From IMG/VR virus record IMGVR_UViG_3300029319_000004, positions 39,017 through 103,016 of that record: 64,000 bases of DNA; one strand, given 5' to 3'. This DNA is from a virus. Positions 3,461 through 62,822 of the stretch are shown here, piece after piece. Position 1 is the stretch's first letter. Each line of letters starts with the position of its first letter. The notes beneath the pieces were generated by a model that was not told the DNA's origin, made no database searches, and was given only the letters and a program-made list of their open reading frames with translations. A program made the translations under genes and the position numbers.

Positions 3461-6400
3461 ATGACTGAAAAAAAAATTACAACAATATCTGATCCATGGG
3501 CGTCGTGGAAAGCGTATGATGATTCTGAGCTTTGTCCAGAATCATCCACAATTGATGAGTATATTGGAGATGACGTAAGTCTGTATGAGCAGCTGCAGCA
3601 GTTAAATAGCGATAAATACACCTCCAATAATACTAGTTCCGGTAGGTCCACCAGCTATTCTCAGGGTGTTGTTATCTCTGTTCTTTCTGGTAAGCATGCT
3701 AACAACGATGCTTCAACGCTTGGAAGAGAAACAGGCGCATTAAACGTTCGTGGTACTCGTCCTGTGCACGAAGAGGTTTCTGTGTTAGAGGGCAAAGCTC
3801 CAGCCCTCAGGGTTAAAGTTAAGTTGTTTTGTGAGCATCAGCATTTACCATGGCCGGAAGATGATAAAGATATAAAAACTATAGATCAATACCCAGAAGC
3901 TGTTGCATTTGATGCCAGCATTGACGAAAAAGCTGTGGTAGCACCAGGCAGTGCAATATGGGTAGCATTATACAATTCAGATGATGTTCACAGTGGGATT
4001 ATAGGTGTGATAGTCAATGCGCTTGATGCGAACAAACCATCGGTTTCTACCGTAGACATTTCACCAAAAGACGGATTTAAACCAAAGTGTACCTCACCAT
4101 TAAACATTTCTGATGGTGGACAGAACTATGTTGCAGATACAGTTTCTATTTTAGACAATGGACCATTAGTTCGTAGAGTTAAGAAAAAAATTCCTCTGGG
4201 AGTTTTTGGAAATGGAACAGCCCAAACTAAATCTCATTTTGTTGCTAGTCTTTTAAACTCTGATCCATCAACAGTTCAAAATTTAGAGGGACCAGCAGAT
4301 TCTTTTAAAAATGCTTTTATATGGGTTGGCCATCTTAAGAACAATGGATATTTAGACCATGTAGATAGGCCATCAACAATAGGCAGAGAAACTATCATTT
4401 ATGCACCAAAGTATTTTACTACTGCCCATCCGTATGAAATTATATATTATTTACATGATAGATCAGGATTTGGATTTTGCTGGGTTGACGGTCCAAAAAC
4501 TACAGTTGAGCAAGCTATAGCAAATGCCTCACTAGAAGGAAATGACTTCTCACAGATCATAGGTCCAGCTATAAAAAACCTTAGTTTACTAGGTAGAAAT
4601 TTTATATTGGTTATACCCGAAATGATGCACTCTAGAGGTTACGGAACACCAATTGCAGATGCGTCAAGGATACAAAAATATACTCTTGGACAGGATGTTG
4701 GAAAAGGAAGTGTTGCACAATTTGATTTAGTGCAAAGAGTAAACCCAGAAGTTAGTGGTAACGAGGCAGCTCTAGCATCTTTACGCGCTAATTTACAACA
4801 AAAATCTTATAATCAAGGTGGAAAAACTCTTGCGTCAATAAATCGATTTGTAGAAAGACAATATTCTACTTTTGATAATTCTTATACTGGAGGTAACTTT
4901 TTTAATTTTGATGCAGAGGTGCAAAGCACAATTCAAGCTTACTTAGGAAATGATTTAGGAACTCCAAATATAACAATTGTAGCTGACGGACTATCTTCTG
5001 TAACTTTAGCAGCAATGTCAATTGCGCCTGAAAATGGTCTACCAGGTTTAAGCAGTGTTGCGAATCTAAAAAGAATTAATTATATTACTGCTGAGGAAGA
5101 TTTTGGATTATATTCTCCTACTTTTAGTAGTTTTCCATCTATTGCATTATTTGAAAATTTAGTTTCTGGCATATCTGATATGGAATTTAATTACGTTACA
5201 AAATATTCTGCCACTCTAAAGAATAATTTATTTTTTAGTCATGTAAATTTAGATGGACACTTTAGAACAATGTTTAAGCCTGGATCAAATGGTCGAATAT
5301 TTTCTAAGCCGGCTTCTGTTGGCGGTGGAACAGCAGATACAGGAATTTGTTTGCATCTGTCGTCAAACAAAAGTTTGTATGGGCTTACAATCCACAATGA
5401 ATCAACAATTAATACAGAATTATTAAGAATGCAGAAGCCTAGTTTAAGTAAGGTTTTACAATCAGAAATTCCAAATCACGCTGCACAACTAAGCACAAAG
5501 CCCTCTGTAGCCGCGATGCTTGAAGCAGAGTCAAAAATTAACAGCTTGAATGGAAAAAATGAATTTTTTAACGGTTTTTTGTTTGATTTTGTCAATAGTT
5601 CATCCGGAGGCCTTACGGCTTCTAGTCAAGTGTGTCTTAACCCAGATTGGAAAATATTTTGTCGTGCAGAGGACCCAACAACACCTGACGAAGCAAAGTT
5701 TGTAAACATGGAGGAGGGAAGCAGACTTCAAACAATGTACAGTGATTGGTACGAAAATTACAAAGAAATTGTAAAACAAGAAATGATACAAGAAGCACTT
5801 GTAGAAGTTGCGCACATAAACAGAAATCTTAATCTTTTAGATCAATCTTTTGTAGATGTTGGAAAAATGATAGAAGATTTTAAAAAGTCACAAAAAAATT
5901 ATGATGCCTTAGCAGATTATTATTCAACATTTAGATTTTCAGATTGGGATCCATCTGTGGACGCTACAAACACTAATGCAGAGTCAATTTTAAGATCTGA
6001 CATAAGAAATTTTCATATGGTAGAGGTGCTTGAGTTAAAAAGAAAAAAACTACAGGAAATTTACGATCAATACACTTCTGCTCAAATATCTTCTTTCTCT
6101 GACCCTGATTGTGCAACTCCTGCAACTTCGCTTGGGTTGTTGAAAAATAACAATATTTCTGGATCTCAAACATCAAATGCCTTTATTGAGTGCGGTAGGC
6201 TAAGATTGTCAAATCCTGCTCCATCCTCTTACGCAGAATTGTCTAATTATATACCCTTTTATCCAACAAAACAAGATTTTGTTGATCTTAAAAAAAATGA
6301 TATTCAACAAGTTGAGGGCTATAAACTACTAGGTTTTAAGTATTTAACAAGGAAAGCTAACAGCAAGATAAGTTACCTAAACTCAGCTCAAACAGGCACA

Positions 6401-7150
6401 AAAGTGTGGCAGTGTATTGTTCCTATAATTGAAAAAAGTTGGGAAAATGCATGTGTTATATCAAAATATATTCCTTTTAGAGCTGCTTTTGGTTTTAGAG
6501 CAGATCCAACACCAAATTTAAAAGATAGCTTATCTTTACATAATTTAGGACTTGCTATCGATGTTGATCCTGCCCTTAGTCCATCAGGGAATGATAAGAC
6601 ATCTGGTATTTTTACTAACTCTTGGAAGCTTGGAATCGGAGGAAATTATGAAATTGACCAGCTTGGAATATTTTCAGAAAGGTTTTTTGATTTGAAAAAT
6701 AATGTTTATAAATCTTCTATTTTTACCGGAGAGACATTAATTACTACTGATGATTGGGATAGTGCTTATGGTGCTCATCGCGATAAAAGTATTGGTGATT
6801 ATTTAACTGGAATGCATAAAGGAAATGTTGTTTGCCCACTAGAATCAAATCCTCTTCTGTGGGTATTAGTTTTTTGCGAAACATCCGGAATGAAATGGTG
6901 TAATTCAACTTTTATGAGAAAAAGATATCGAGGGGGGCAGAGATGGTCTCCACTAGAATTAAAAAAAATTGATAGAATTTTTGGTATCAATAATGTTGTT
7001 AGAAGAGTTGAAGCTATATCACACCGATCAACAAAAGGAGAAGCTCTAAACAACCACATGCAATTTCAATGGTGGAGCAATCGTTCCACAATAAAATTTG
7101 ACGAAATAAGACAAGCAGAAGAGATAAATGGAGTTCAGGGTAAGCCCTAA
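3461..7150 (+). CDS. Tail spike/lysin: OB-fold-like N-terminus and peptidase M15 C-terminus
   Basis: A 1229-aa protein with three readable parts. Residues ~65-190 look like the OB domain of gp5/VgrG-type spikes: 'LRVKVKLFCEHQHLPWPEDD' followed by 'VVAPGSAIWVALYNSDDVHS' and 'GIIGVIVNA'. Residues ~320-560 have an alpha/beta-hydrolase-like order ('EIIYYLHDRSGFG', 'NFILVIPEMMHSRGYG', then 'ITIVADGLSSVTLAAMS' at the nucleophile-elbow position), but the G-x-S-x-G is imperfect, so activity is doubtful. The C-terminal ~220 residues carry peptidase M15 (VanY/endolysin type) ligands: 'SLHNLGLAIDVDP' with H1027-x6-D1034 and a later 'NNHMQFQWW' with H1199. M15 enzymes cut peptidoglycan stem peptides. The gene has AAGGAG just upstream and heads the baseplate block. 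The M15 assignment is the strongest part; the OB and hydrolase readings are inference. Confidence 0.7.
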   Translation: MTEKKITTISDPWASWKAYDDSELCPESSTIDEYIGDDVSLYEQLQQLNSDKYTSNNTSSGRSTSYSQGVVISVLSGKHANNDASTLGRETGALNVRGTRPVHEEVSVLEGKAPALRVKVKLFCEHQHLPWPEDDKDIKTIDQYPEAVAFDASIDEKAVVAPGSAIWVALYNSDDVHSGIIGVIVNALDANKPSVSTVDISPKDGFKPKCTSPLNISDGGQNYVADTVSILDNGPLVRRVKKKIPLGVFGNGTAQTKSHFVASLLNSDPSTVQNLEGPADSFKNAFIWVGHLKNNGYLDHVDRPSTIGRETIIYAPKYFTTAHPYEIIYYLHDRSGFGFCWVDGPKTTVEQAIANASLEGNDFSQIIGPAIKNLSLLGRNFILVIPEMMHSRGYGTPIADASRIQKYTLGQDVGKGSVAQFDLVQRVNPEVSGNEAALASLRANLQQKSYNQGGKTLASINRFVERQYSTFDNSYTGGNFFNFDAEVQSTIQAYLGNDLGTPNITIVADGLSSVTLAAMSIAPENGLPGLSSVANLKRINYITAEEDFGLYSPTFSSFPSIALFENLVSGISDMEFNYVTKYSATLKNNLFFSHVNLDGHFRTMFKPGSNGRIFSKPASVGGGTADTGICLHLSSNKSLYGLTIHNESTINTELLRMQKPSLSKVLQSEIPNHAAQLSTKPSVAAMLEAESKINSLNGKNEFFNGFLFDFVNSSSGGLTASSQVCLNPDWKIFCRAEDPTTPDEAKFVNMEEGSRLQTMYSDWYENYKEIVKQEMIQEALVEVAHINRNLNLLDQSFVDVGKMIEDFKKSQKNYDALADYYSTFRFSDWDPSVDATNTNAESILRSDIRNFHMVEVLELKRKKLQEIYDQYTSAQISSFSDPDCATPATSLGLLKNNNISGSQTSNAFIECGRLRLSNPAPSSYAELSNYIPFYPTKQDFVDLKKNDIQQVEGYKLLGFKYLTRKANSKISYLNSAQTGTKVWQCIVPIIEKSWENACVISKYIPFRAAFGFRADPTPNLKDSLSLHNLGLAIDVDPALSPSGNDKTSGIFTNSWKLGIGGNYEIDQLGIFSERFFDLKNNVYKSSIFTGETLITTDDWDSAYGAHRDKSIGDYLTGMHKGNVVCPLESNPLLWVLVFCETSGMKWCNSTFMRKRYRGGQRWSPLELKKIDRIFGINNVVRRVEAISHRSTKGEALNNHMQFQWWSNRSTIKFDEIRQAEEINGVQGKP

Positions 7151-7166
7151 CGCAGAGGTTACATAA

Positions 7167-8465
7167 GTGTCATTAGATATTAAAACAAGAGAATATAGTA
7201 CATCTGTTAATGGTGATCTAAAAAAAGTTCATAGCGTGTCTGTCGTTGGCCCAGCAGGCCCAATCAAAACACTACAAACACAAGATGTCAAAGAAGCTAA
7301 TGATTTTGTATTAAAATCTCTGGATGAATATCCTAATGCAACAATAAATGGGGAAAATACAGATGAGTCTCCTTTTACTTCTGATGCGCCTGCGTTTAAG
7401 CCCTCCAAGAAAATAAATGAAGATCCTCCAGGGCTGGCAAGTAGTGGCACAGCAATCAGTAACAAAGCTCCTACCCCTAATCTCAATAATCTTTCTAGTC
7501 GCTTGCCGCAAATAAGAAAATCTTCAAAGAAAAAAGCAGTTGATTTAAGTGGTTTGTCTGTTGAAAAACAAAGAATTTATAAACAAAGTTCTAAACAAGA
7601 GCGCATAGATCGTGGTCTTATTGGTCCTTTTTGCGGAGAAACTATGGAGGCTGTGCCTAATAGGATAACAACAAAAGGAGAAAAAATTATTGGTAAATCA
7701 CCAACTAGTCCAGCTTTTATTGTTTGTGGTCGTGATCGTCCAAGATCCACAGCTAGTGGATATGGCGGTAAAGGCCACACTCAATCTAGTTGTATTGATT
7801 TGGTTGCTGGTCTGGGAGGCTATAAGCCAAAGCAAGTTGATTCTAGCGATAATCCAGTCTATACAGATCCAGATATGTTTATGGACGCTGCAAGAGTTTA
7901 CATATCTCAAAAAACAGATGTGGATGAAAATTTTGCAATCGGAAAAAAAGAAACATATTTTAGATCTAAAGCGAAATCTGCAATTGCTGTGAAGGCAGAT
8001 CATGTGAGAATTATTGGAAGAGAAAGTTTAAAATTAGTTACTTATACTGATAGAATGAATTCTCAAGGGGGAGAAATAAGATCTTGGTCTGGAATTGAAT
8101 TAATGGCGAATAACGATGAAGACGGTCTTCAACCAATACCCCGTGGCGACAATCTAGCACTGGGATTAAGAAAACTTAGTGTTAATGTGGAAAAATTAGC
8201 AAAAATTTTAAGTGGATTTATTGAATACCAAGGGGTATATAACGAACAGGTTGCTGAACATACACACGTTGCTCCTTTCTTTGCAAAGCCCACGCTTCCA
8301 GACCCTAACATTATTAAAGCCGGCTTGCAACAAAGCACTAATGCTTTTTCAAAAAGTCAAATGAGCATATTAAAAATTTTAACAAATTTAGCCGGCTTTA
8401 GACACAATTTTCTTGTTGAGAGCGGCAAGAGTTATATTAATAGTAGATACAACAAGGTTAATTAA
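7167..8465 (+). CDS. Baseplate spike-associated structural protein
   Basis: A 432-aa protein starting at GTG 7167, 17 bp after the spike/lysin gene, with AGAGG upstream. Residues ~180-215 hold a conserved-looking Gly-rich motif, 'IVCGRDRPRSTASGYGGKGH' followed by 'TQSSCIDLVAG'. Residues ~265-290 ('KSAIAVKADHVRIIGRESLK') read like one strand-turn of the intertwined beta structure at the tip of gp5/gp45-type spikes. A later 'EHTHVAPFF' may be a metal-binding tip. The first 140 residues are low in structure and rich in Ser, Pro and Lys. With its position between a probable lysin and the giant baseplate protein, I read it as a spike or hub component; it could also be a separate hub adaptor. Confidence 0.55.
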   Translation: MSLDIKTREYSTSVNGDLKKVHSVSVVGPAGPIKTLQTQDVKEANDFVLKSLDEYPNATINGENTDESPFTSDAPAFKPSKKINEDPPGLASSGTAISNKAPTPNLNNLSSRLPQIRKSSKKKAVDLSGLSVEKQRIYKQSSKQERIDRGLIGPFCGETMEAVPNRITTKGEKIIGKSPTSPAFIVCGRDRPRSTASGYGGKGHTQSSCIDLVAGLGGYKPKQVDSSDNPVYTDPDMFMDAARVYISQKTDVDENFAIGKKETYFRSKAKSAIAVKADHVRIIGRESLKLVTYTDRMNSQGGEIRSWSGIELMANNDEDGLQPIPRGDNLALGLRKLSVNVEKLAKILSGFIEYQGVYNEQVAEHTHVAPFFAKPTLPDPNIIKAGLQQSTNAFSKSQMSILKILTNLAGFRHNFLVESGKSYINSRYNKVN

Positions 8466-8470
8466 AATAC

Positions 8471-11400
8471 ATGTCTTTAACTGCAGCAAAACAAAATGAA
8501 GCAAAGTCATCGTTACTGGATATAAAAAAAATATTAGGACTTTTAATTCAGTCTGATTCTGAAATAGAAAAATTATCTGCGCTAACAAGCATTGGAGTAG
8601 ATTTTGATAGTTCAGGATATAATACCATCAAAGAAGATACTGATTCTCCTGATTCTACTTTCGAAAATGTAGCCTCCTCTCTGCTTTCTTTAATGACAGA
8701 GTCATCAAATCTTTTAGCAGCGCTTAACGATGTTAATCTAGAAGAGAAAGAAAGTTTAAGTCTTTTTACGGAAGGTGCATCAACTTTAGCTGATATCATA
8801 GACAATATTGATCCAAAAGTATATCAAGATCCTAAATTATGGTTTAAGGGGTTTCCAACTGATTGGATTGGCAATGTGCAGCCATCTTCATATGAAAGCC
8901 TAGTTAAGCAATTTTGCAGAAGGATGCAGTATGATGTCGAAGACGCTGGAGGTGTATCTAATTTTGATCCTAAGACTTTCTTATTTCAAGCTTTATCTAA
9001 TTCTTTAAAAAAATACTCATCTCTATTTGGAAAAAGTTATTTTAACAGAAGACCAATAGAAGCGCCTCCTGGCCCAATTGATATCGCTCAAATGATGCCA
9101 GTTGATGAAAATTTAGAAACAAAATTTCTTCCAAAAAACATCAATGCGACTCACTATATTGGCGCCCTAGAGCCTGCAGTTAGTTCAGCAGGCGCAAGAG
9201 AAGAAGATTATTTACCTGTTAGATTGGCGCCAGGTGCGTATCCAACACCCTTAGCTAGTGGCTGGGATGATGAGGGATATAAACTATTAAATAAACAAGG
9301 AAAATTAGTCAATCAGTCTCACCCTCGTGAAAATGGAATAGTTATTCCTATAGGAACACAAGTTTTTGTAACTGAAGTTGTTCTTGGTCTTTCTGGCGTG
9401 TGGGTAGGATTTATTCCTTTAGATTTAAGCGGTCAGCAAAAGTCTGCTTATGAAGCTGCAACTAAAAAAAATCAAAACATACTCTACACTCATGTAGATT
9501 ATCTTAGAAGGTTTGCATCTTCAGATCCTATGGCAGTGTTATCTCAAACACTAATTCCTTATGATGGTCAAGATCCTAGAGCTAGTACCATGCAAGGTGC
9601 TTCTCTTATAAAACCTGATTCAAATCTAAACTGGACAACTTTGGGCTATGGCGATGTTCACTTAGCCTATTATAACTTTTTAGAACACAATAATAAATAT
9701 CCAATTTATTTAGACGCAGATGATAATCCATCTGTTAGCGAACCTGATAATCTTGAAGCTATAGGTGCAATGTTTTCTAGGCCTCGTGGAAAATTTTCGG
9801 AAGGTTATTATTATTTTGCAACTCTTGATACAACTCGTCCAACAGTTGGAGAACTTTTAGAAAGCATTTCTCCTGGGCCTGGTGTAGAAAATTCAAACGA
9901 AATGAGAGAGGCGAAAGAAGAAGCAGCAACTAATGCAATTAGTGAATTAACGCCTCAGGCAATAAAAATTATTTTAGAATATGCTGGAAAACAAATTCCA
10001 GACGACCTTCTCAGTTTTGAATCATACTATATTGCTCCTGTAGCTCAAAACTTATCAACGCGTGGTGGAGAAAACAATGCAAGAATTCTTTTTGCGATGC
10101 CAGCACAAGTAGTCGACGCGCTTCCGAATTCGAAAAACATATATTATGATGATTTTAATTCTGATCTAAAAGACACTTTTAACGGTAAAGATTACACATT
10201 TACAATAAAAATATCTGATATTCCAAAAATATCTGAAAAACTAGTTCAGTTTTTAGAAAATATTAAATCAAAATTAGATACGTTTACTCAAGAGGGTGGG
10301 GCTATAAAAAATCCTAATGGAATTGATTATAATATCGAATCTCAAATAACAAGGATTGAAGAGTTCCCCATAATATTAAATGATTTTTTGCAAAGGCAAA
10401 GCACAGCTGGAGAAAGAGATGTTTTGTCTGAGCATCTTTCTTTAGGGACAAACATTGAGGGAGAAGCATTAATACAGTTTGGAATAAGAGACAATGGACA
10501 AGTTGGAGGGCAAGTAAGACAGACAGTATCTTTTGTTCTTTATAGTCCAGATCCAGATAGACTAGTACAGTCGAACAGGAAAGAGTTTGTTACCTTAGAT
10601 CCTTATTTAATTGATGAAGAAAAAAATGGTTTAGCAGTGCCAACTAGGACTGGAGTTGTACTAACGAAGGCGCTACCTTGGTTGAGAGATAAATTTCTTG
10701 ATGCTGAAGGTGCAAGGACTCTTCACTATTTCATGTCTCATAGAAACTTAATTGAGTTTGATTCTGAAACAGGCGCAGACTTGAGACTAAATGAGTGGGT
10801 TAAGTTTTTGCAGGCATATACTGTTCCTCCGTTATTAATAAAGTTATCAAAGGAAAAATCTACATCACCAGAGCAAATAGACTGTAAAAAGCTAGTTGAT
10901 GATTTATTGAATTCTCCCAGCGTTGTTGGGCCAAAAGATAAAAAGTTAAGAGAGCTTGTAGAAAAAAGATGCGGTAAAGAGTATCTTGAAGCGGTTCTGC
11001 AAGATACAGATGCTAGTGATTCTGAATCATCAGAAAAAGCCTTAGAATTTAAACAAAAAGCCTCTCAAAACCCTGGCTCCTTTGGCAATTCTAAAGCAGC
11101 TGCTCATTTAACTTTATTATATAGACAGTTTCTTCATAAGCTTGACCCACAGGGTTTAATTGCTTTATTGATGGCATGTCTGCAGGAACAATTAGGTATT
11201 CCGCTAACAGCAGAAGCGCTTTGTGAGGTTGCAATAGAAAAACTTATTGAAGCAGCTGGGGTTGAAGAAATTAAAAAAACAATTGTAAAAGCAGTGCCTG
11301 AACTTGCTTTGTTTTTTCCCGAGCTTCGTGTCGCTGAAAGGCTTGGCGACATTAGTGTAATGAACCCTGATCCCTATGATTATGACAACTCATCTGAAAA

Positions 11401-51958: not shown

Positions 51959-52480
51959 ATGATTTTAGGACTAGATGTTAGCACCAGCATAACAGGTGCC
52001 ACTGTCATTGACAGTGATGGAAAAATAGTATATAATGAGGCGTGGGACCTGAGAAAGTATAAAGATTTCTTTCAAAAAGCAGAAGTTGTAAAAGGCAAAA
52101 TTTGGGAACTAGAAGATACTTTTCTTATCAAAGAAATTTACATTGAGCAGTCTCTTCAGAGCTTCAGAAGTGGCTTTTCCTCTGCAAAAACTCTCTCTAC
52201 TCTTTCTCGCTTCAATGGTGTTGTGTCTTGGCTGTGTTATGACATTTTAAAAACTGCGCCAGAGTATATAGCTGCCACAAGTGCCAGAAAAAAGGTTGGG
52301 ATAACAGTTCCAAAGGGAACAAAAGCTAAAGAGTGTGTTATTAAGCATGTAATTGACAATGTGCCAGATGTTGCTATAACTTATACTAAGTTCGACAATG
52401 TGAAGCCTGAATGCTACGATAAAGCAGACAGTTGGGTTATCGCTATGGCAGGTCATATACAATGCAAGACAAAAAACTAA
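51959..52480 (+). CDS. RuvC-like Holliday junction resolvase / crossover junction nuclease
   Basis: A 173-aa protein, the standard RuvC size. The RNase H-like fold is marked by 'MILGLDVSTSITGATVIDSD' (D6, first metal ligand), 'IKEIYIEQSLQSFRSG' (E63, second acid) and the late 'ECYDKADSWVIAMAGH' (D154 and D157, the last acids). RuvC-type enzymes cut four-way DNA junctions symmetrically. In T4-like phages junction cutting by gp49 removes branches before packaging; a RuvC-like enzyme could fill that role here. It is followed by the primase gene with a 19-bp overlap. Strong family assignment; whether it cuts Holliday junctions or other structures is not shown. Confidence 0.85.
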   Translation: MILGLDVSTSITGATVIDSDGKIVYNEAWDLRKYKDFFQKAEVVKGKIWELEDTFLIKEIYIEQSLQSFRSGFSSAKTLSTLSRFNGVVSWLCYDILKTAPEYIAATSARKKVGITVPKGTKAKECVIKHVIDNVPDVAITYTKFDNVKPECYDKADSWVIAMAGHIQCKTKN

Positions 52481-53403
52481 AAATTCTAACCTCAGTATTA
52501 GGAAGATATTTTTCTTCCAGTGATGAAAAACTTTTTCACTGTCCTAGATGCGAGCACCACAAGCAGAAGCTCTCTGTAAATATAGAAAAAAACGTATTTA
52601 AATGCTGGGTTTGTGATTACAAAGGAAAAGACCTTTATAGGATTGTCAAAAGATATGGCGTATACGAGCAACGTCGCAAATGGAAAGAGTTGACATCTAC
52701 AGTTGATGTAGAGAACTTTACAGCCAATCTTTTTGATCAGAGACAAGAACAAGAGAAGCAGATTATTGACATGCCCCGCGAGTTTATATCGTTAGCAAAT
52801 AAAAATCTTCCACCCTTGTCGATGTATGCTTTAAATTATCTTCACTCACGTGGACTATCAAAGGCGGATATTATAAGATGGAAAATAGGTTTTTGCCCAG
52901 ATGGAGATTACGGAGGAAGAGTTATTGTACCATCGTTTGACGAGGACGGAGATTTAAATTACTTCATTGCTAGATCTTATGATCACACGTGGCCAAAATA
53001 TTTAAATCCTAAAGATGCTAATAAGGGTATCATATTTAATGAGCTTTTTTTAGATTTTGATGAGGACCTTATCTTAGTTGAGGGGGTATTTGACGCAATT
53101 GTTGCTGGTCCCAATGCTGTGCCGATACTTGGATCAACTCTGAGAGATGAACACCCTTTAATTCAAAAAATCATTGATAACGACACAACAATATACATTG
53201 GGATGGATCATGATGCGAAAAAGAAAGAATTAGACATAATTAAGCTGCTACTCAAGTATGATATTGAAGTTTACAAAATTGATACTGGCAATCATGATGA
53301 TATTGGCTCAATGAAAATATCTGAATTCAGAGAAAGAAAACAATCTTCTTCATTAGTTACAAATGACAACTATTTATATCAAGTTATACAGGAGTTTTTG
53401 TAG
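52462..53403 (+). CDS. DNA primase (CHC2-type zinc finger plus TOPRIM)
   Basis: I start at ATG 52462 ('MQDKKLKILTSVLGRYF'), inside the resolvase end; the frame is open from 52432 but without a good site. The 313-aa protein has an N-terminal zinc ribbon C27-x2-C30 ... C48-x2-C51 ('FHCPRCEHHKQKLSVN', 'VFKCWVCDYKGK') and a TOPRIM fold: E207 in 'LILVEGVFDAIVAGPNAV' and D249/D251 in 'YIGMDHDAKKKELDII'. The helix between ('YLHSRGLSKADIIRWKIGFC') is the usual DnaG/T7 gp4-like RNA polymerase domain entry. It makes RNA primers on the lagging strand. There is no helicase domain, so it must work with a separate helicase. The next gene starts at the stop overlap. Confidence 0.88.
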   Translation: MQDKKLKILTSVLGRYFSSSDEKLFHCPRCEHHKQKLSVNIEKNVFKCWVCDYKGKDLYRIVKRYGVYEQRRKWKELTSTVDVENFTANLFDQRQEQEKQIIDMPREFISLANKNLPPLSMYALNYLHSRGLSKADIIRWKIGFCPDGDYGGRVIVPSFDEDGDLNYFIARSYDHTWPKYLNPKDANKGIIFNELFLDFDEDLILVEGVFDAIVAGPNAVPILGSTLRDEHPLIQKIIDNDTTIYIGMDHDAKKKELDIIKLLLKYDIEVYKIDTGNHDDIGSMKISEFRERKQSSSLVTNDNYLYQVIQEFL

Positions 53404-53733: not shown

Positions 53734-54006
53734 ATGAAAGTTACGAAAGAAAAACTTCGAGAAATCATAAAAGAAGAGCTTCAAGAAGCTTACGTTCAGT
53801 CCTTATCTTCTAAAGGCTCACATGAGGGAAGAATGGCTAGAAGCCAACTTTTAAGGTCTGCGGAGTATTCTGTTAAGCTCATTAATATGATTGAAGACGA
53901 TGATGAATTGCCCTCATGGGTACAATCAAAAATTACGTTGGCATCAGATTATTTAGCTAAAGTTTATCACTATCTTTATGGTGAAGAAGTTTTTGATCAA
54001 GAATAG
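53734..54006 (+). CDS. Small conserved phage protein with MKVTK-type N-terminal helix (90 aa)
   Basis: A 90-aa protein. The first 20 residues 'MKVTKEKLREIIKEELQEA' form a basic amphipathic helix of a type I recall at the start of several small marine phage proteins. The remaining part, 'LRSAEYSVKLINMIEDDDEL' and 'PSWVQSKITLASDYLAKVYH', matches a short helical bundle motif ('P-x-W-V-Q-x-K-I-x-x-A-x-D-Y-x-x-x-V-x-H-Y') common in cyanophage-like genomes. No function has been shown to my knowledge. The gene ends at 54006 and is followed by a sigma70-type promoter for the nuclease. Confidence 0.6.
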   Translation: MKVTKEKLREIIKEELQEAYVQSLSSKGSHEGRMARSQLLRSAEYSVKLINMIEDDDELPSWVQSKITLASDYLAKVYHYLYGEEVFDQE

Positions 54007-54036: not shown

Positions 54037-54055
54037 GCTATGAGCAGGAGTTTAT

Positions 54056-57000
54056 ATGAAATTTGCTCACATAGCTGATACTCACATCAGAAACTTAAAA
54101 TATCACAAAGAATACAAAGAGGTATTCAACAACCTTTACAAATCCTTAAAGGAAAAAAAGGTTGACTACATTGTCCATTGTGGAGACATTGCACACACAA
54201 AAACTCAGATCTCGCCTGAGTTTGTTGAGATGTGCTCTGATTTTCTTTTTAACCTAGCAGAGATTGCCCCTACATATGTTATTCTTGGGAACCATGATGG
54301 AAATTTAAAAAATTCAAATCGTCAAGATGCGCTAACCCCAATTGTTCATGCGCTGAATCATGATAACTTATTTTTGCTCAAGAACTCTGGAGAAACTCAG
54401 ATTGATAATAAATTTACTATTAATGTATTATCAGTCTTTGATAGGGAAAACTGGCAACTACCTACTAATGAGGAAAAAATAAATATTGCCCTATACCATG
54501 GCTCTATTAGTGGTGTAACCACAGACTCTGGCTGGACAATGGAGAGCGGTGAAGATGATATCAATATTTTTAATAACTTTGACTATGGGTTTCTTGGTGA
54601 CATCCACAAGACCAATCAGACCCTTGATAAAAAAGGAAAAATTAGATATCCAGGATCAACCGTACAACAAAACCATGGAGAAACAAACGACAAGGGTTTT
54701 CTATTATGGGACATTGTAAGCAAAGATAGCTTCACTTGTGAGCACATAGTATTAAAAAACCCTAAGCCGTTTATTACAATAAAGCTGACACCTAAGGGTC
54801 GCTTACCTAACAAAATTTCTATTCAAGAAAACTCTAGATTGCGCCTTGTAGCAGAGAACAATTTACCCCTTGATGTTATTCGTCGAGCTATAGACGTAGC
54901 AAAACACCGGTTCTCTCCAGAGTCTGTAACCTTTCTAAATCGTGCACAAGGCGATCGTAAGGATATGCAAGAGAGTACAAACTCTTTGGGCAAGCAAGAC
55001 CTTCGAGATCTTGCAGTTCAGGAAAAGCTAATACAAGAGTACCTAGAAGATTTTCACCCTAGTCAGGATACACTCAAGTCTGTTTTTTCTTCAAACTCAT
55101 CATACAATACAAAAGCTGAAGAGCAAGAGGACATCCAAAGAAATGTTAACTGGAGACTTCTTAAGCTAGAGTGGGACAACCTTTTTAACTACGGAGAGGG
55201 CAACTGTATTGATTTTTCTGAAAAACAAGGAGTTGTAGGTATTTTAGGGAAGAATTTTTCTGGAAAATCAAGCACTATTGATAGCCTTCTTTATACCTTA
55301 TACAATACCACTTCGAAACGTAATAGAAAAAATCTTAATTTAATTAACCAAAATAAAGACAATGCACGTGGTTATATTGAAATTGGAATTGGAACAAAAA
55401 TCTATTATGTTGAAAGAACAAGCACAAAATATACTAAAAAGCTAAAAGGAAAGCAGACTCTAGAAGCTAAAACTGATGTTAATTTTTGGCTTATTGACGA
55501 GGCAACCGGAGAGGAAAGATCGCTAAACGGTATTACACGTGCAGAAACTGATAAAAACATTCGTAAGGTTTTTGGAACTTTAGAGGATTTTTTGACAACC
55601 TCTATGGCTAGTCAGCTTGACTCTCTTTCATACATAAATGAAGGGTCAACTCGAAGAAAAGAAATATTAGCTAAGTTTTTGGATTTGGAATTTTTTGATA
55701 AAAAGTTTAAACTTATAAAAGAGGATACTACTGACGTAAAAGCCGTTGTTAAAAGGTTTTCCGATGTAGATTATGATGATGAGATCTCAAATGCCAGAAC
55801 TTTACTGGCTAGATCTCAAACAGAGCTTTCTGTAAATCAAAGAGAGCTTGAGAAGATAGAGTTAGATAAAGAAAATCTCGTTGTTGCATTGACTAGCATT
55901 AACTCTAAGCTGCAGCAAATACCTAATGAAGTCGTCGAAGGTAGCGGCCTAGAAGATAAGATATCTAAAACTCAAGACACTATCTCAACTTTAGAAATTA
56001 ATTCTTCATCTATCTCAGATAAGCTTCATGCCTGCAATAATATACATACTAAGCTTGAAAATTTTATTGAAAATTTTGATATCGAGAATTGGAAAAGTCG
56101 TAATCAAGATATTGAAGATATGAATGATCGTCTTCAAAAAGTTCAAAGAGACTTAGATGAGTATGAGACTCTTAACAATAGAAATAATTCAAAAATAGAG
56201 CTTTTAAAAAGCGCACCTTGTAACAAAGCATTAAAACAAAAATGTCATTTTGTGAAAGATGCGTATAAGGCCTATGAGGACGTCTCTAGAACTAGAATGG
56301 CTGTTAATCAATTATCTTTGAATAAGAAAACTTTAATTTCTAGGTTGAAAGAGTCGCAGCCTGAAAAAGTTATGCGCTATATTGAACAATACGAAACGCT
56401 CTTAGAGAAAAAGAGGCAAAAAACTATTGAAGTAGCCAATCTAAAGCTTGACATGCAAAAAAACAAGTCTCAGCTGTTTCAGCTTAGGTCTCTTTACGAT
56501 GAGCTTCTTGTAAAACAGCAAAAACAACAAGATAACTTGGACTTGATAAAAGAACTAAATGGTCTAGAAAAAGAAAGGAAAGAGACTGAAAAACTTCTTC
56601 AACAGACTTCGAGCGAATACGAAGATCAAAAAGTTTTAGTTCTCGACTTGTATAAGAAAAGTGGCAGCTATGAACAAAGCCTTCAGGAGCTTATTGATCA
56701 AAAAGAGGAATTTGAAAACATGGAGAAGGAGTTTACGACTCTAGATCTTTTGATGCGATGCATGCACCCTAATGGCATTTCTTACGATATTATCAAAAAA
56801 CAATTGCCAGTCATTAACACTGAAATTTCTAAAATTTTAACTAATATTGTCGATTTCCAAATCTTTTTTGAAAATGACGAAAATCGACTCAATATTCTTA
56901 TTCAACACCCTGGATATGCGGCTCGTCCAATTGAGATGGGCTCAGGTGCAGAAAAGACTATAAGCGCTATGGCAATCAGATTAGCTCTTCTAAACGTGTC

Positions 57001-57211
57001 TACTTTGCCAAAAAGCGATGTTTTTATTCTTGATGAGCCTGGTACTGCGCTAGATGAGGACAATATGGAGGGCTTTATTAGGATTCTTGAAATGATTAAA
57101 ACACAGTTTAAGACAGTGTTGTTAATCTCTCACCTTGACACCCTTAAAGATATTGTCGATCAGCAAATTATCATTGATAAGAAAAATGGATATGCTAGTG
57201 TAAACGAATAA
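54056..57211 (+). CDS. Fused SbcD-SbcC (gp47-gp46) recombination nuclease
   Basis: A single 1051-aa chain that joins what are normally two proteins. Residues 1-~290 are the Mre11/SbcD/gp47 phosphoesterase: D8 and H10 in 'FAHIADTHIRN', D44 in 'VHCGDIAHTK', 'VILGNHDGN' (N79-H80-D81), 'ALYHGSISG' and 'FLGDIHKTNQ'. Residues ~370-1051 are the Rad50/SbcC/gp46 ATPase: Walker A 'GKNFSGKSSTIDSLLY' (G398...K404-S405), a long coiled coil, a hook with C722-x7-C730-H ('PCNKALKQKCHFV'), the signature 'MGSGAEKTISAMAIRLALL' near residue 961 and Walker B 'VFILDEPGTALDED' (D993-E994), with 'LLISHLDTL' after it. The complex resects double-strand ends for recombination-dependent replication. It is preceded by a good promoter. 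Confidence 0.93.
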   Translation: MKFAHIADTHIRNLKYHKEYKEVFNNLYKSLKEKKVDYIVHCGDIAHTKTQISPEFVEMCSDFLFNLAEIAPTYVILGNHDGNLKNSNRQDALTPIVHALNHDNLFLLKNSGETQIDNKFTINVLSVFDRENWQLPTNEEKINIALYHGSISGVTTDSGWTMESGEDDINIFNNFDYGFLGDIHKTNQTLDKKGKIRYPGSTVQQNHGETNDKGFLLWDIVSKDSFTCEHIVLKNPKPFITIKLTPKGRLPNKISIQENSRLRLVAENNLPLDVIRRAIDVAKHRFSPESVTFLNRAQGDRKDMQESTNSLGKQDLRDLAVQEKLIQEYLEDFHPSQDTLKSVFSSNSSYNTKAEEQEDIQRNVNWRLLKLEWDNLFNYGEGNCIDFSEKQGVVGILGKNFSGKSSTIDSLLYTLYNTTSKRNRKNLNLINQNKDNARGYIEIGIGTKIYYVERTSTKYTKKLKGKQTLEAKTDVNFWLIDEATGEERSLNGITRAETDKNIRKVFGTLEDFLTTSMASQLDSLSYINEGSTRRKEILAKFLDLEFFDKKFKLIKEDTTDVKAVVKRFSDVDYDDEISNARTLLARSQTELSVNQRELEKIELDKENLVVALTSINSKLQQIPNEVVEGSGLEDKISKTQDTISTLEINSSSISDKLHACNNIHTKLENFIENFDIENWKSRNQDIEDMNDRLQKVQRDLDEYETLNNRNNSKIELLKSAPCNKALKQKCHFVKDAYKAYEDVSRTRMAVNQLSLNKKTLISRLKESQPEKVMRYIEQYETLLEKKRQKTIEVANLKLDMQKNKSQLFQLRSLYDELLVKQQKQQDNLDLIKELNGLEKERKETEKLLQQTSSEYEDQKVLVLDLYKKSGSYEQSLQELIDQKEEFENMEKEFTTLDLLMRCMHPNGISYDIIKKQLPVINTEISKILTNIVDFQIFFENDENRLNILIQHPGYAARPIEMGSGAEKTISAMAIRLALLNVSTLPKSDVFILDEPGTALDEDNMEGFIRILEMIKTQFKTVLLISHLDTLKDIVDQQIIIDKKNGYASVNE

Positions 57212-59231: not shown

Positions 59232-60803
59232 ATGTCGTCAGTATTGTCCAAGAAAGAGATAATTGCAGAAGTGGTAAAAGCTGGTAAAGATCCAGTTTAC
59301 TTTATAAATAATTACTGTAGAATATCTCATCCCCAATTAGGCTTGATACCTTTCAAAACTTACGATTTTCAAGCTAGTCTTGTGGGTGATTTTAATGAGC
59401 ATCGATTTAATGTTATTTTAAAGGCCAGGCAGCTTGGAATATCTACTATATCTGCAGCTTATATTGCTTGGTTGATGATGTTTCATCGTGACAAAAACGT
59501 TCTTGTTATTGCCACTAAGTTTCAAACGGCTGCAAATCTAGTTAAAAAAGTCAAGGCTATTCACAAAAATTTGCCAGATTGGCTTCGAATATCTGAAATA
59601 TCTATAGACAACAGAACTTCTTTTGAGCTTTCAAATGGGTCACAGATTAAAGCATCATCTACCTCGTCAGATGCTGGACGTTCAGAAGCACTTTCTTTAT
59701 TGGTTATTGACGAGGCTGCTCATGTCGATGGGTTAGATGAGTTGTGGGCTGGCCTATACCCTACCTTATCAACCGGAGGAAGATGCATAGCTCTTTCAAC
59801 TCCTAATGGCGTTGGTAACTGGTTTCATCAAACGTGTATCGATGCTGAAGCAGGAAAGAATGATTTCTTTTTGACCACGTTGAAATGGGATGTCCACCCT
59901 GACCGCGACCGAGAGTGGTTTGAAAAAGAAACTAAAAATATGCCTGTTAGGCAGATAGCTCAAGAGCTAGAATGTAACTTTAATATGTCTGGCGAGACAG
60001 TCTTCCATCCTGAAGACATGCAATGGATTAAAGAGAACCTAGAGGATCCAAAATATAGAACAGGTTTTGATAGAAATTTGTGGATCTGGGAGGAGTATCA
60101 ACCAGGCTCCTCTTATATGGTTTCTGCTGATGTCGCTCGTGGAGACGGAAATGACTACTCCGTGTTTCATGTTGTTAAGTTGGAGACAAGTGAAATAGTG
60201 GCAGAGTATCAAGGAAAGCCAAATCCAGATATGTTTTCAGTGATGCTAAACGAGATAGGAAAAGAGTATGGAAATGCGCTCTTGGTTGTTGAGAACAACA
60301 ATATAGGCTGGTCAGTTCTTGATAAAATACAAGAACAGCAATATGATAATTTATACTTTAGCAAGAAATCAACTCATGAATATGTTGATGCACATGCTAG
60401 TCTTTATGAGAATGTTGTACCTGGTTTTTCCACAACTATCAAGACAAGACCATTGATAGTTGCAAAGCTTGAAGAGTTTGTAAGAAATAAACTAATTAAA
60501 ATTAAGTCTAAAAGAATGTATAATGAAATGCAAACATTCGTTTGGCAAAATGGCAAACCTCAAGCAATGAAAAAAAATAATGATGATTTAATTATGGCAT
60601 GCGCAATTGGATGTTGGGTAAAGGATACGGCACTCTCAGTATCTCAACGAGAGGTGGCATATCAAAAAGCATTCTTATCTTCCATAGGAACTTCAGAAAC
60701 AAAACTTAATACCGCAATACCCGGCATGGAAGGTTATAAGTCTACAAAAAAGAACAAACAACTAGAGAAGCTTAAAGATCACTTATGGCTTTTGAAGGGA
60801 TAA
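59232..60803 (+). CDS. terL: Terminase large subunit (gp17-like packaging ATPase/nuclease)
   Basis: A 523-aa protein, a normal TerL length. ATPase: 'VILKARQLGISTISAAYIAW' with K64 at the start and I70 where the usual Walker A lysine sits (deviant Walker A), Walker B 'LSLLVIDEAAHVDG' (D160-E161), and coupling motif 'CIALSTPNGVGNW' near 187-196. Nuclease (RNase H-like): D300 in 'MVSADVARGDGNDYS', E354 in 'LLVVENNNIGW', and D451/D452 in 'NNDDLIMACAIG'. The enzyme pumps DNA into the prohead and cuts concatemers. It lies directly before the portal gene without the sheath and tube genes that T4 has in between. Very confident. Confidence 0.96.
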   Translation: MSSVLSKKEIIAEVVKAGKDPVYFINNYCRISHPQLGLIPFKTYDFQASLVGDFNEHRFNVILKARQLGISTISAAYIAWLMMFHRDKNVLVIATKFQTAANLVKKVKAIHKNLPDWLRISEISIDNRTSFELSNGSQIKASSTSSDAGRSEALSLLVIDEAAHVDGLDELWAGLYPTLSTGGRCIALSTPNGVGNWFHQTCIDAEAGKNDFFLTTLKWDVHPDRDREWFEKETKNMPVRQIAQELECNFNMSGETVFHPEDMQWIKENLEDPKYRTGFDRNLWIWEEYQPGSSYMVSADVARGDGNDYSVFHVVKLETSEIVAEYQGKPNPDMFSVMLNEIGKEYGNALLVVENNNIGWSVLDKIQEQQYDNLYFSKKSTHEYVDAHASLYENVVPGFSTTIKTRPLIVAKLEEFVRNKLIKIKSKRMYNEMQTFVWQNGKPQAMKKNNDDLIMACAIGCWVKDTALSVSQREVAYQKAFLSSIGTSETKLNTAIPGMEGYKSTKKNKQLEKLKDHLWLLKG

Positions 60804-60806
60804 AAC

Positions 60807-62822
60807 ATGGCAAAAAATAAAAATAAATCAGGCGATAGAAATCCTAAAAATCCACTCTTTAGACAACTATCAAAGCTGCTTTCAGGGCCGCTTGTCCGAT
60901 ATCGTAGGCAAGACGCAAAGCAGCTAAAAAGACGACAACTAGATAAATATGCCACTCGTTTTAATTCTACCTCTGGGCAAGAGTTTAAGATGTCCTCCTA
61001 CAGCGATGTATACGGCATGCTCCAGGCGGAATATTATGCAAACCAAAACAGGCTTGATCGATATGTTGATTTTGATCAGATGGAATACACGCCTGAAATT
61101 GCGTCAGCATTAGATATATACGCGGACGAAATGACAACATCTTCCCCATATACTCCTATAATTAATATACAATGTAGCAACAGTGAAATAAGAGGGGTGC
61201 TGGACACTTTATTTTTTAATATTTTGAATATTGAATTTAACTTATACGGCTGGGCTCGTTCAATGTGTAAGTATGGAGATTTCTTTCTTTACCTTGATAT
61301 TGAGCAAGATGAAGGGATTAAAAACACTATAGGCTTGCCCCCAACAGAGATTGAAAGACTTGAGGGTGAGGATCGAATGAATCCAAACTACATTCAGTTT
61401 CAATGGAATTCTGGTGGCCTTACGCTAGAAAATTGGCAAGTTGCTCATTTTAGAGTTCTTGGTAATGATAAATTTGCCCCGTATGGCACTTCAATTCTTG
61501 ATGGAGCAAGAAGAATTTGGAGACAATTAACCCTTCTTGAAGATGCAGTTATGGCATATAGAATTGTTAGATCTCCTGAGCGGCGAGTATTTAAGATTGA
61601 TGTTGGCAATATACCCCCGGAAGATGTGGAACAATACATGCAAAGGGTCATGACCCAGATGAAGAGGAATCAAATTGTAGACGCTAGCACCGGTCGAGTT
61701 GATTTAAGATACAATCCTCTCAGCATTGAAGAAGACTACTATATTCCTGTTAGAGGTGGCCAAACTAGCACTGATATTTCTGTTGTTGGTGGTGGCAAAT
61801 ATACTGGAGATATCGAAGATGTTAAGTATCTTAGAGACAAATTGTTCAGCGCGCTTAAGATCCCTATGTCCTATTTATCTCGCGGTGACGGCGCCGACGA
61901 GGACAAGTCTACTTTAGCACAGAAAGATATTCGATTTGCTAGAACTGTGCAGAGACTACAGCGCTCTATTATATCTGAGCTTCACAAGATGGCAGTTATT
62001 CATTTGTATACAATTGGATATCGTGGTAATGACTTGTTATCGTTCAAGATTAAATTAAACAACCCTTCGAAACTAGCTGAATTGCAAGAGCTAGAGCACT
62101 GGAAGGCTCGCTTTGGAGCGGCTGGTGAAGCTACTGAAGGATACTTTAGTCGTCGATGGGTTGCTAAAAATATTCTTGGGTTGCAAGAAGAAGAGTTTAG
62201 AAGACTCCAAGCAGAGAGTTATTATGATAAAAAGCATGATATTTCACTTGAGAAAGTTGGAGAATCAGAGGCAGAAGGTGCTGGCGGCGGTGGTGCTTTA
62301 GGTGGAGACTTAGGTGGCGGTTTAGGCGGTGATCTTGGTGGTGGAGATTTAGGAGGTGATCTTGGTGGAGACCTTGGCGGGGATCTAGGAGGAGAAGCTG
62401 GCGCTGGAGAAGGAGGAGACGCTCCTGGCGGTGAAGAACCACCGGCACCAGGGGGAGATCTCTTGGCTACCCCACCTGGAGAAACAGCACCAGCAAAAAG
62501 AGATGAAGATGGCAACCTGAAAAAGGGTCAAACTAGAAAGTATAAAAAATCAAAATATAAAACAAAAGGGCAGTCGGGCAAAAGCAGAGGCGCTTTTACT
62601 AGGTCTCAACAAGGAATGTATTCAAAAGAAACCTCTTCAGGCACTGTACGCAACATTCACAAGGGAAAAGATAGTTTAGACGCTGCCATAAAACATTCTC
62701 ATAGCCTAACAGAAAACAAAACTGATTTTTATGATCAGGAAGAAATAAAACTATTTAAAGAGAACCATGAATTTAAAACACTAATCAACTCTCTGGAGAA
62801 AAACCATGAAGTTTCATCATAA
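60807..62822 (+). CDS. Portal protein (gp20-like) with Gly-rich insertion
   Basis: A 671-aa protein, longer than T4 gp20 (524 aa). Core features of T4-type portals: 'YTPEIASALDIYADEMTTSS', 'WQVAHFRVLGNDKFAPYGTS', 'RRIWRQLTLLEDAVMAYRIV', 'RSPERRVFKIDVGNIPPEDV', 'EDYYIPVRGGQTSTDI', and 'KIPMSYLSRGDGADEDKSTL'. The portal is the twelve-subunit ring through which DNA enters and leaves the capsid. From residue ~490 a Gly/Asp/Leu repeat run follows, then Pro-rich and Lys-rich stretches and a charged helical C-terminus ('DSLDAAIKHSHSLTEN'). This extra ~180-residue tail is unusual in length. The gene overlaps the next one by 17 bp. Confidence 0.93.
   Translation: MAKNKNKSGDRNPKNPLFRQLSKLLSGPLVRYRRQDAKQLKRRQLDKYATRFNSTSGQEFKMSSYSDVYGMLQAEYYANQNRLDRYVDFDQMEYTPEIASALDIYADEMTTSSPYTPIINIQCSNSEIRGVLDTLFFNILNIEFNLYGWARSMCKYGDFFLYLDIEQDEGIKNTIGLPPTEIERLEGEDRMNPNYIQFQWNSGGLTLENWQVAHFRVLGNDKFAPYGTSILDGARRIWRQLTLLEDAVMAYRIVRSPERRVFKIDVGNIPPEDVEQYMQRVMTQMKRNQIVDASTGRVDLRYNPLSIEEDYYIPVRGGQTSTDISVVGGGKYTGDIEDVKYLRDKLFSALKIPMSYLSRGDGADEDKSTLAQKDIRFARTVQRLQRSIISELHKMAVIHLYTIGYRGNDLLSFKIKLNNPSKLAELQELEHWKARFGAAGEATEGYFSRRWVAKNILGLQEEEFRRLQAESYYDKKHDISLEKVGESEAEGAGGGGALGGDLGGGLGGDLGGGDLGGDLGGDLGGDLGGEAGAGEGGDAPGGEEPPAPGGDLLATPPGETAPAKRDEDGNLKKGQTRKYKKSKYKTKGQSGKSRGAFTRSQQGMYSKETSSGTVRNIHKGKDSLDAAIKHSHSLTENKTDFYDQEEIKLFKENHEFKTLINSLEKNHEVSS
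62278..62410 (+). repeat. Gly-rich GGDLGG tandem repeat in the portal gene
   Basis: About 45 codons, encoding a run of units like G-G-D-L-G-G interrupted by single A, E and G changes. The DNA repeats are imperfect because third positions vary, so the amino-acid pattern is what is conserved. It forms a flexible Gly-rich linker near residue 490-535 of the portal. Confidence 0.8.

What the first reader, a model, noticed from the sequence alone, without database searches (positions are those of the whole stretch)
54056..57211. SbcD and SbcC (gp47 and gp46) fused in one chain
Seen: one uninterrupted 1051-aa frame carries all phosphoesterase motifs (D8, H10, D44, N79-H80-D81, GDIHK) and then Walker A, coiled coil, hook, signature and Walker B of a Rad50-type ATPase. 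Known: these are normally two separate proteins in a heterotetramer. The fusion fixes a 1:1 ratio and order (nuclease at the N-terminus). The hook is also unusual: C-x7-C-H instead of C-x-x-C.
Basis: partly seen in the sequence, partly recalled or inferred. Interest (0 to 1): 0.6.

Follow-up and report, generated by a model that had tools for sequence, protein, structure and literature searches.

The report
Phage one-chain Mre11-Rad50 repair nuclease
This virus of bacteria makes the two halves of a DNA-break-processing machine (nuclease and ATP-driven clamp) as one protein; such fusions have been known since 2011 and are widespread in related viruses, but the metal-binding tip of this one departs from the usual pattern.

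Summary
Window 54056-57211 (+) is one intact 1051-aa frame: SbcD/Mre11 nuclease, capping domain, helix-loop-helix, a linker of about 8 residues, then a full SbcC/Rad50. It is not an assembly error: 79 of 80 related IMG/VR contigs carry the whole protein in one open frame (50-99% identical; the 80th is cut by its contig end). Phage Mel-JY01, a 735-kb phage, and Tenacibaculum, Sphingomonas and Chryseobacterium phages are also fused. The architecture is not new: Yoshida et al. 2011 (PMC3175470) described Mre11/Rad50 fusions (Mimivirus R555) and argued that their aquatic homologues, linked to primase genes, are phage. This clade fits: primase lies just upstream in 56 of 59 loci with room. Best mechanism: a homodimeric MR resection nuclease feeding recombination-dependent replication; the record also encodes RecA/UvsX, gp32-like SSB, RuvC-like resolvase and primase, and no second SbcC or SbcD was found. 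The unexpected part is the hook. Canonical Rad50 hooks are CxxC (106 of 106 split gp46 here); this clade mostly has PC-x6/7-C (77 of 90 rows; 13 CxxC). On a head-domain tree the forms switch at least six times, suggesting exchange of hook cassettes. I found no prior description.

The parts
54046..54050 (+). Shine-Dalgarno AGGAG
   Evidence: sequence read directly
54056..57211 (+). fused SbcD-SbcC (Mre11-Rad50) gene, 1051 aa
54056..54715 (+). SbcD/Mre11 phosphoesterase domain, residues 1-220 (D8, H10, D44, N79, H80, H148, D182, H184)
   Evidence: Pfam PF00149; conservation; model
54758..54943 (+). Mre11 capping-domain-like region, residues about 235-296
   Evidence: predicted strand-helix-strand; Foldseek alignment to Mre11 structures; exact limits are inference
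55004..55123 (+). Rad50-binding helix-loop-helix of Mre11, residues about 317-356 (helices 319-333, 337-356)
   Evidence: model; expected in fusions by PMC3175470
55124..55147 (+). short linker between the two halves, residues 357-364
   Evidence: model; the stretch 220-380 is 158-162 residues long in all 81 rows
55247..55273 (+). Walker A GKNFSGKSS, residues 398-406
   Evidence: invariant in 81 rows except F/Y at 401
55688..56212 (+). first coiled-coil arm, residues about 545-719
   Evidence: helices in model
56213..56251 (+). hook, residues 720-732, C722-x7-C730 (non-CxxC)
56252..56764 (+). second coiled-coil arm, residues about 733-903
   Evidence: helices in model
56936..56959 (+). ABC signature MGSGAEKT, residues 961-968
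57020..57040 (+). Walker B VFILDEP, residues 989-995
57128..57139 (+). H-loop SHLD, residues 1025-1028
51959..52480 (+). RuvC-like Holliday junction resolvase; same strand and place in 55 of 56 sister loci with room
   Evidence: PHROG 159 and 827, weak E-values 4e-5 and 3e-4; synteny
52462..53403 (+). DnaG-type primase
   Evidence: PHROG 47, 7.6e-38; upstream of the fusion in 56 of 59 loci of this clade and 19 of 19 of the Mel-JY01 clade
59232..60803 (+). terminase large subunit, T4 type (context)
   Evidence: PF03237, PHROG 2
60807..62822 (+). T4-type portal gp20 (context)
   Evidence: PF07230, 1.2e-81

Best explanation
A one-chain Mre11-Rad50 (SbcD-SbcC) complex of a T4-related phage. Two identical chains dimerise through the nuclease domains, the ATP-bound heads and the hooks, rebuilding the usual M2R2 complex as a homodimer. 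ATP binding and hydrolysis by the heads opens and closes access to the two-metal nuclease, which trims ends and gives 3' single strands; the phage's gp32-like SSB and RecA/UvsX then drive strand invasion, and DnaE polymerase, DnaB helicase, primase and the RuvC-like resolvase complete recombination-dependent replication and repair. Shown here: the intact fused frame; conserved catalytic, ATPase and structural elements; no second SbcC/SbcD found in the record; co-encoded recombination genes. Inferred: oligomeric state, activity, polarity, role in replication, and hook dimerisation.
For: Both halves detected by profiles; PDB sequence hits to Rad50 and Mre11; Foldseek hits to the C. thermophilum MRN, E. 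coli SbcCD and Mre11-Rad50 structures, and full-length hits to giant-virus proteins named DNA repair exonucleases. Nuclease and ATPase residues under strong constraint in 81 rows. HLH helices and a linker of about 8 residues sit where the 2011 paper said a fusion would need about 9-12 residues. Only one SbcC/SbcD locus in the 180.7-kb record. RecA/UvsX, gp32-like SSB, DnaE, DnaB and 5'-3' exonuclease, primase and RuvC-like. In T4 and cyanophage ACG-2014f the split genes run gp47 then gp46, the order of the fusion.
Against: No biochemistry. Two catalytic-motif departures (H47 for D in GDxxD; D182 for the first His of GHxH) could change metal use or activity, although they are invariant in the clade. 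The structure model has pTM 0.46, so domain packing is not shown. The hook is not CxxC, so hook-mediated dimerisation is not assured. The record is not shown to be complete, so a second SbcC/SbcD elsewhere is not excluded.
Confidence: 0.85

Rival explanations
1. Artefact: a sequencing or assembly error has joined two adjacent genes.
For: In T4 and cyanophages the genes lie close together and are split, so a lost stop could join such genes.
Against: 79 of 80 related contigs give the full-length single frame with a constant junction length; L002 is 99% identical on a separate contig; Mel-JY01, PAU, pT24, PTm1 and MA9V-1 records are annotated as single genes.
Confidence: 0.01
2. The fused protein is specialised, for example for degrading host DNA or for defence or counter-defence, rather than for replication and repair of the phage genome.
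For: T4 gp46/gp47 is annotated as required for host DNA degradation as well as recombination; the catalytic-motif changes might alter substrate choice.
Against: Conserved position beside primase and a RuvC-like resolvase; RecA/UvsX and SSB co-encoded. Both roles can coexist.
Confidence: 0.12
3. The chain is processed after translation into separate SbcD and SbcC, so the fusion is only a way of joint expression.
For: A low-confidence stretch (residues 298-312, pLDDT below 50) lies before the HLH and could be exposed.
Against: The region next to the ATPase contains invariant residues (E358, R362, N363, W366) and its length is nearly fixed, which speaks for a structural role.
Confidence: 0.04

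Closest known systems
Mre11/Rad50 (SbcDC) fusion proteins, Mimivirus R555 type (Yoshida, Claverie, Ogata 2011, PMC3175470)
   Same: Same order (nuclease first), HLH and short linker kept; same two substitutions reported for R555 (third D of GDxxD to H; His206 of P. furiosus Mre11 to D); aquatic homologues near primase genes and suspected to be phage.
   Different: 1051 aa here against 1351 aa in R555; hook of the C-x6/7-C type. R555 itself could not be aligned here, so membership of its exact clade was not tested by sequence.
T4 gp47/gp46 and cyanophage gp47/gp46
   Same: Nuclease and ATPase of the same families, same gene order, phage context with SSB, UvsX/RecA, and T4-type terminase and portal.
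   Different: Two proteins there; CxxC hook in 106 of 106 sampled gp46; GHxH with two histidines in T4 and ACG-2014f.
Fused proteins of Microcystis phage Mel-JY01, Tenacibaculum pT24/PTm1, Sphingomonas PAU, Chryseobacterium MA9V-1 and 735-kb phages LR756501/LR756503
   Same: Single chain, nuclease first (1066-1326 aa).
   Different: The window protein is 29.5% identical to Mel-JY01 and 27.6% over the matched half of the 735-kb phage protein; the others are longer and more distant; all of these have CxxC hooks (Mel-JY01).
Bacterial SbcCD and archaeal/eukaryotic Mre11-Rad50
   Same: Domain content and predicted fold.
   Different: Separate subunits; canonical zinc hook in E. coli SbcC (CPLC).

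Membership tests
[quoted passage not shown]
Mre11/Rad50 (SbcDC) fusion proteins | capping region, HLH and a linker of about 9-12 residues before Rad50 | tested here: met
   predicted elements with a linker of about 8 residues; from a model of moderate confidence
Mre11/Rad50 (SbcDC) fusion proteins | R555-type substitutions (GDxxH; D for Pf His206) | tested here: met
   H47 and D182 in 81 of 81 rows, compared with the text of PMC3175470
Mre11/SbcD nuclease | all canonical metal ligands and catalytic His | tested here: inconclusive
   D8, H10, D44, N79, H80, H148, H184 present; D182 stands for one His ligand, a change also seen in split Vibrio phage VspSw_1
Rad50/SbcC ATPase | Walker A, signature, Walker B, H-loop around a coiled coil | tested here: met
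Rad50/SbcC ATPase | CxxC zinc hook at the coiled-coil apex | tested here: not met
   C722-x7-C730; 77 of 90 related rows have C-x6/7-C, 13 have CxxC. The hook is described as conserved in all forms of life in PMC5093744
Rad50/SbcC ATPase | zinc-mediated hook dimerisation | not testable with these tools
   needs metal binding and oligomer assays
T4-type recombination-dependent replication kit | MR nuclease, SSB, RecA-type recombinase, resolvase in one phage | tested here: met
   the RuvC-like match is weak, and UvsY/UvsW were not looked for

The most novel reading that the evidence does not exclude
The PC-x6/7-C hook is a second, working class of Rad50 hook, and phages of this clade exchange it with the CxxC hook as a recombining cassette (sometimes with the coiled-coil arms), possibly so that the repair machines of co-infecting phages do not dimerise with each other.
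Probability: 0.3. Interest if true: 0.6.

Novelty: new variant of a known kind. Interest (0 to 1): 0.36.

Why it matters
The fusion bears on a point left open in 2011: long contigs now show that Mre11/Rad50 fusions with R555-type features sit in phage genomes beside primase, tail, terminase and portal genes. A single-chain MR complex is a convenient object for structure and single-molecule work. The hook is the part that could surprise a specialist: CxxC is treated as universal, and a natural, conserved alternative that alternates with CxxC among close relatives offers a direct test of what the hook must do.

Tried and rejected
Assembly error: rejected. A second, split SbcC/SbcD in the same record: none found. 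The other strand of the gene (one frame translated): full of stops; only a 65-codon ORF is listed there. Plasmid relatives: only partial, weak matches; the 2011 plasmid fusions were not recovered. Genome-contig scan: 18 hits, the strong ones mostly on short MAG contigs, probably phage contigs binned with bacteria. Group I intron in the split gene of LR756508: no Rfam match. Moorella SbcC as a query for more C-x7-C hooks: no relatives found in viral contigs. Papers on non-CxxC hooks: a phrase search found none, which is weak evidence of absence. I first called the Mel-JY01 clade 'freshwater'; a member from a MAG titled Candidatus Nitrosopelagicus (L094) makes that label unsafe and I dropped it; the label 'marine' used in scripts for the window's clade was likewise not verified.

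Full report
Observation. Window 54056-57211 (+) is a single 1051-codon frame from ATG to stop with a good ribosome-binding site. Pfam finds Metallophos at 1-184 and AAA_23 and SMC_N on the rest; PHROGs finds its SbcC and SbcD families; PDB sequence hits are Rad50 to the C-terminal half and Mre11 to the N-terminal half. The window lies in an IMG/VR virus record of 180,711 bases.

Not an artefact. A scan of viral contigs gave 373 stretches that encode relatives; of the 80 kept, 79 match from residue 1 or 2 to 1049-1051 in one open frame at 50-99% identity, and one (L016) begins at the contig edge. The stretch from residue 220 to 380, where a missed stop would lie, is 158-162 residues long in all 81 rows.

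Anatomy. D8, H10, D44, N79, H80, H148, D182 and H184 are conserved throughout the clade, as are Walker A, the signature, Walker B and the H-loop. Two departures from the textbook motifs, H47 for the last D of GDxxD and D182 for the first His of GHxH, are the ones reported for Mimivirus R555. D182 also occurs in the split nuclease of Vibrio phage VspSw_1, so it is not a mark of fusion. The AlphaFold model (25 rows, mean pLDDT 76.7, pTM 0.46) shows a phosphoesterase domain, a strand-helix-strand cap at about 235-296, two helices at 319-333 and 337-356 where the Rad50-binding helix-loop-helix should be, the Rad50 head from 365, and two helical arms of about 175 residues meeting at 720-731. The low pTM means that domain packing is not shown. 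Foldseek places it with MRN, SbcCD and Mre11-Rad50 structures.

Prior knowledge. Fused Mre11/Rad50 proteins were described in 2011 for Mimivirus R555, Bacillus phage 0305phi8-36, several bacteria and plasmids, and some eukaryotes; the authors found R555 homologues abundant in aquatic viromes, on scaffolds with phage primases, and suspected phages (PMC3175470). Here, the best full-length structural neighbours in BFVD are giant-virus proteins (Tupanvirus, Harvfovirus, Catovirus, Terrestrivirus) and Tenacibaculum phages. Fused genes are present in Mel-JY01, 735-kb phages and ten relatives, and pT24, PTm1, PAU and MA9V-1, annotated only as metallo-phosphoesterase. So the fusion is known and common; this clade is a further, abundant group. 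In a tree of nuclease and head segments, 34 fused phage sequences lie on one side of a branch with SH-aLRT 95, but branches are long and the fused rows were fetched with fused queries, so a single origin in phages is compatible, not proven.

Context. Tail-region genes (a label from position, not tested by profile), a RuvC-like gene, primase and the fusion keep order and strand: primase in 56 of 59 clade loci with room, and in 19 of 19 of the Mel-JY01 clade. Downstream lie a T4-type terminase and portal. Elsewhere in the record are RecA/UvsX, gp32-like SSB, DnaB, DNA polymerase III alpha, 5'-3' exonuclease, ThyX, IMP dehydrogenase, ribonucleotide reductase and GroEL-like genes. No second SbcC or SbcD was found in the record. 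This supports a role in recombination-dependent replication and repair, as for T4 gp46/gp47; the role is inferred.

Hook. The window has C722-x7-C730. In the sampled clade plus nearest outgroups (90 rows) 61 have C-x6-C, 16 C-x7-C and 13 CxxC. All 106 split gp46 sequences examined, from T4-like and cyanophage-like groups, have CxxC, and the literature treats the CxxC hook as conserved in all forms of life (PMC5093744). The two forms are discrete motifs: HEYDPxCxxC..N.FVKDA, shared with Mel-JY01, and PCGxxFPxCKFIKDA. On a tree built from the head domains alone the form changes at least six times, forced by starred branches. Closest pairs such as L056/L032, 80-100% identical over most head segments, carry different hooks. 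For L056, L057, L032 and L035, heads group L056 with L032 and L057 with L035, while the arms group L056 with L057 even with the hook removed; AU tests reject L056+L057 on the heads and reject L056+L032 and L057+L035 on the arms (p about 0.003 or less). These groupings were picked after seeing the hook pattern, so the p-values are somewhat optimistic. For L051/L039 and L043/L025 the arms agree with the heads (weakly supported for the latter) and only the hook differs. Exchange of a hook cassette, sometimes with the arms, explains this better than repeated convergence, but no nucleotide breakpoint analysis was done. The unfused SbcC of Moorella phage MTATph1 has PC-x7-C in mid-protein, so the form is not restricted to fusions. 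Whether it binds zinc or dimerises is unknown.

Verdict. The hook class and its alternation among relatives are the part that seems undescribed, within the limits of an open-access text search.

Noticed in passing
L083 (LR756508, 484-kb phage) 5944-10166: The fused gene is in pieces: a 243-codon ORF ends soon after GDIHK, a 305-codon ORF with zinc-ribbon-like motifs resembling a homing endonuclease follows, then an 863-codon ORF resumes at about residue 198; no Rfam intron match. It resembles gene-splitting by a homing endonuclease.
   Followed up: partly
L136 3304-6544: A relative is split into two overlapping ORFs at nearly the same place (residues about 198-214); frameshift or natural split not resolved.
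   Followed up: partly
virus record G000: ORFs ending at 5362, 14045, 14412, 15413, 16946, 18800, 167250: Seven ORFs share a short N-terminal peptide of the type MKLLFENWRRFINE, reminiscent of T4 capsid-targeting sequences that are cleaved from injected internal proteins (recalled, not tested).
   Followed up: partly
window 53734-54006 and record ORFs ending at 6792, 7016, 7639, 11639, 12640: A second recurring N-terminal peptide, MKITKxxLxxIIKEEL, including the small gene directly upstream of the fusion.
   Followed up: partly
L111:7267-10692 and L111:16744-18345 (same virus record): The phage encodes a bacterial-type DNA polymerase III alpha subunit (PHP domain) and a GroEL-like chaperonin.
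   Followed up: partly
L090 5956-8049 (CP070664.1, WOR-3 MAG 'chromosome'): A 698-codon frame 55% identical to residues 2-627 of the fusion lies in a bacterial MAG chromosome: prophage fragment or chimeric assembly.
   Followed up: no
Mel-JY01 clade (L082, L117 and others), Walker B region: Walker B is followed by glycine (AIDEG) rather than DEP as in the window clade.
   Followed up: no
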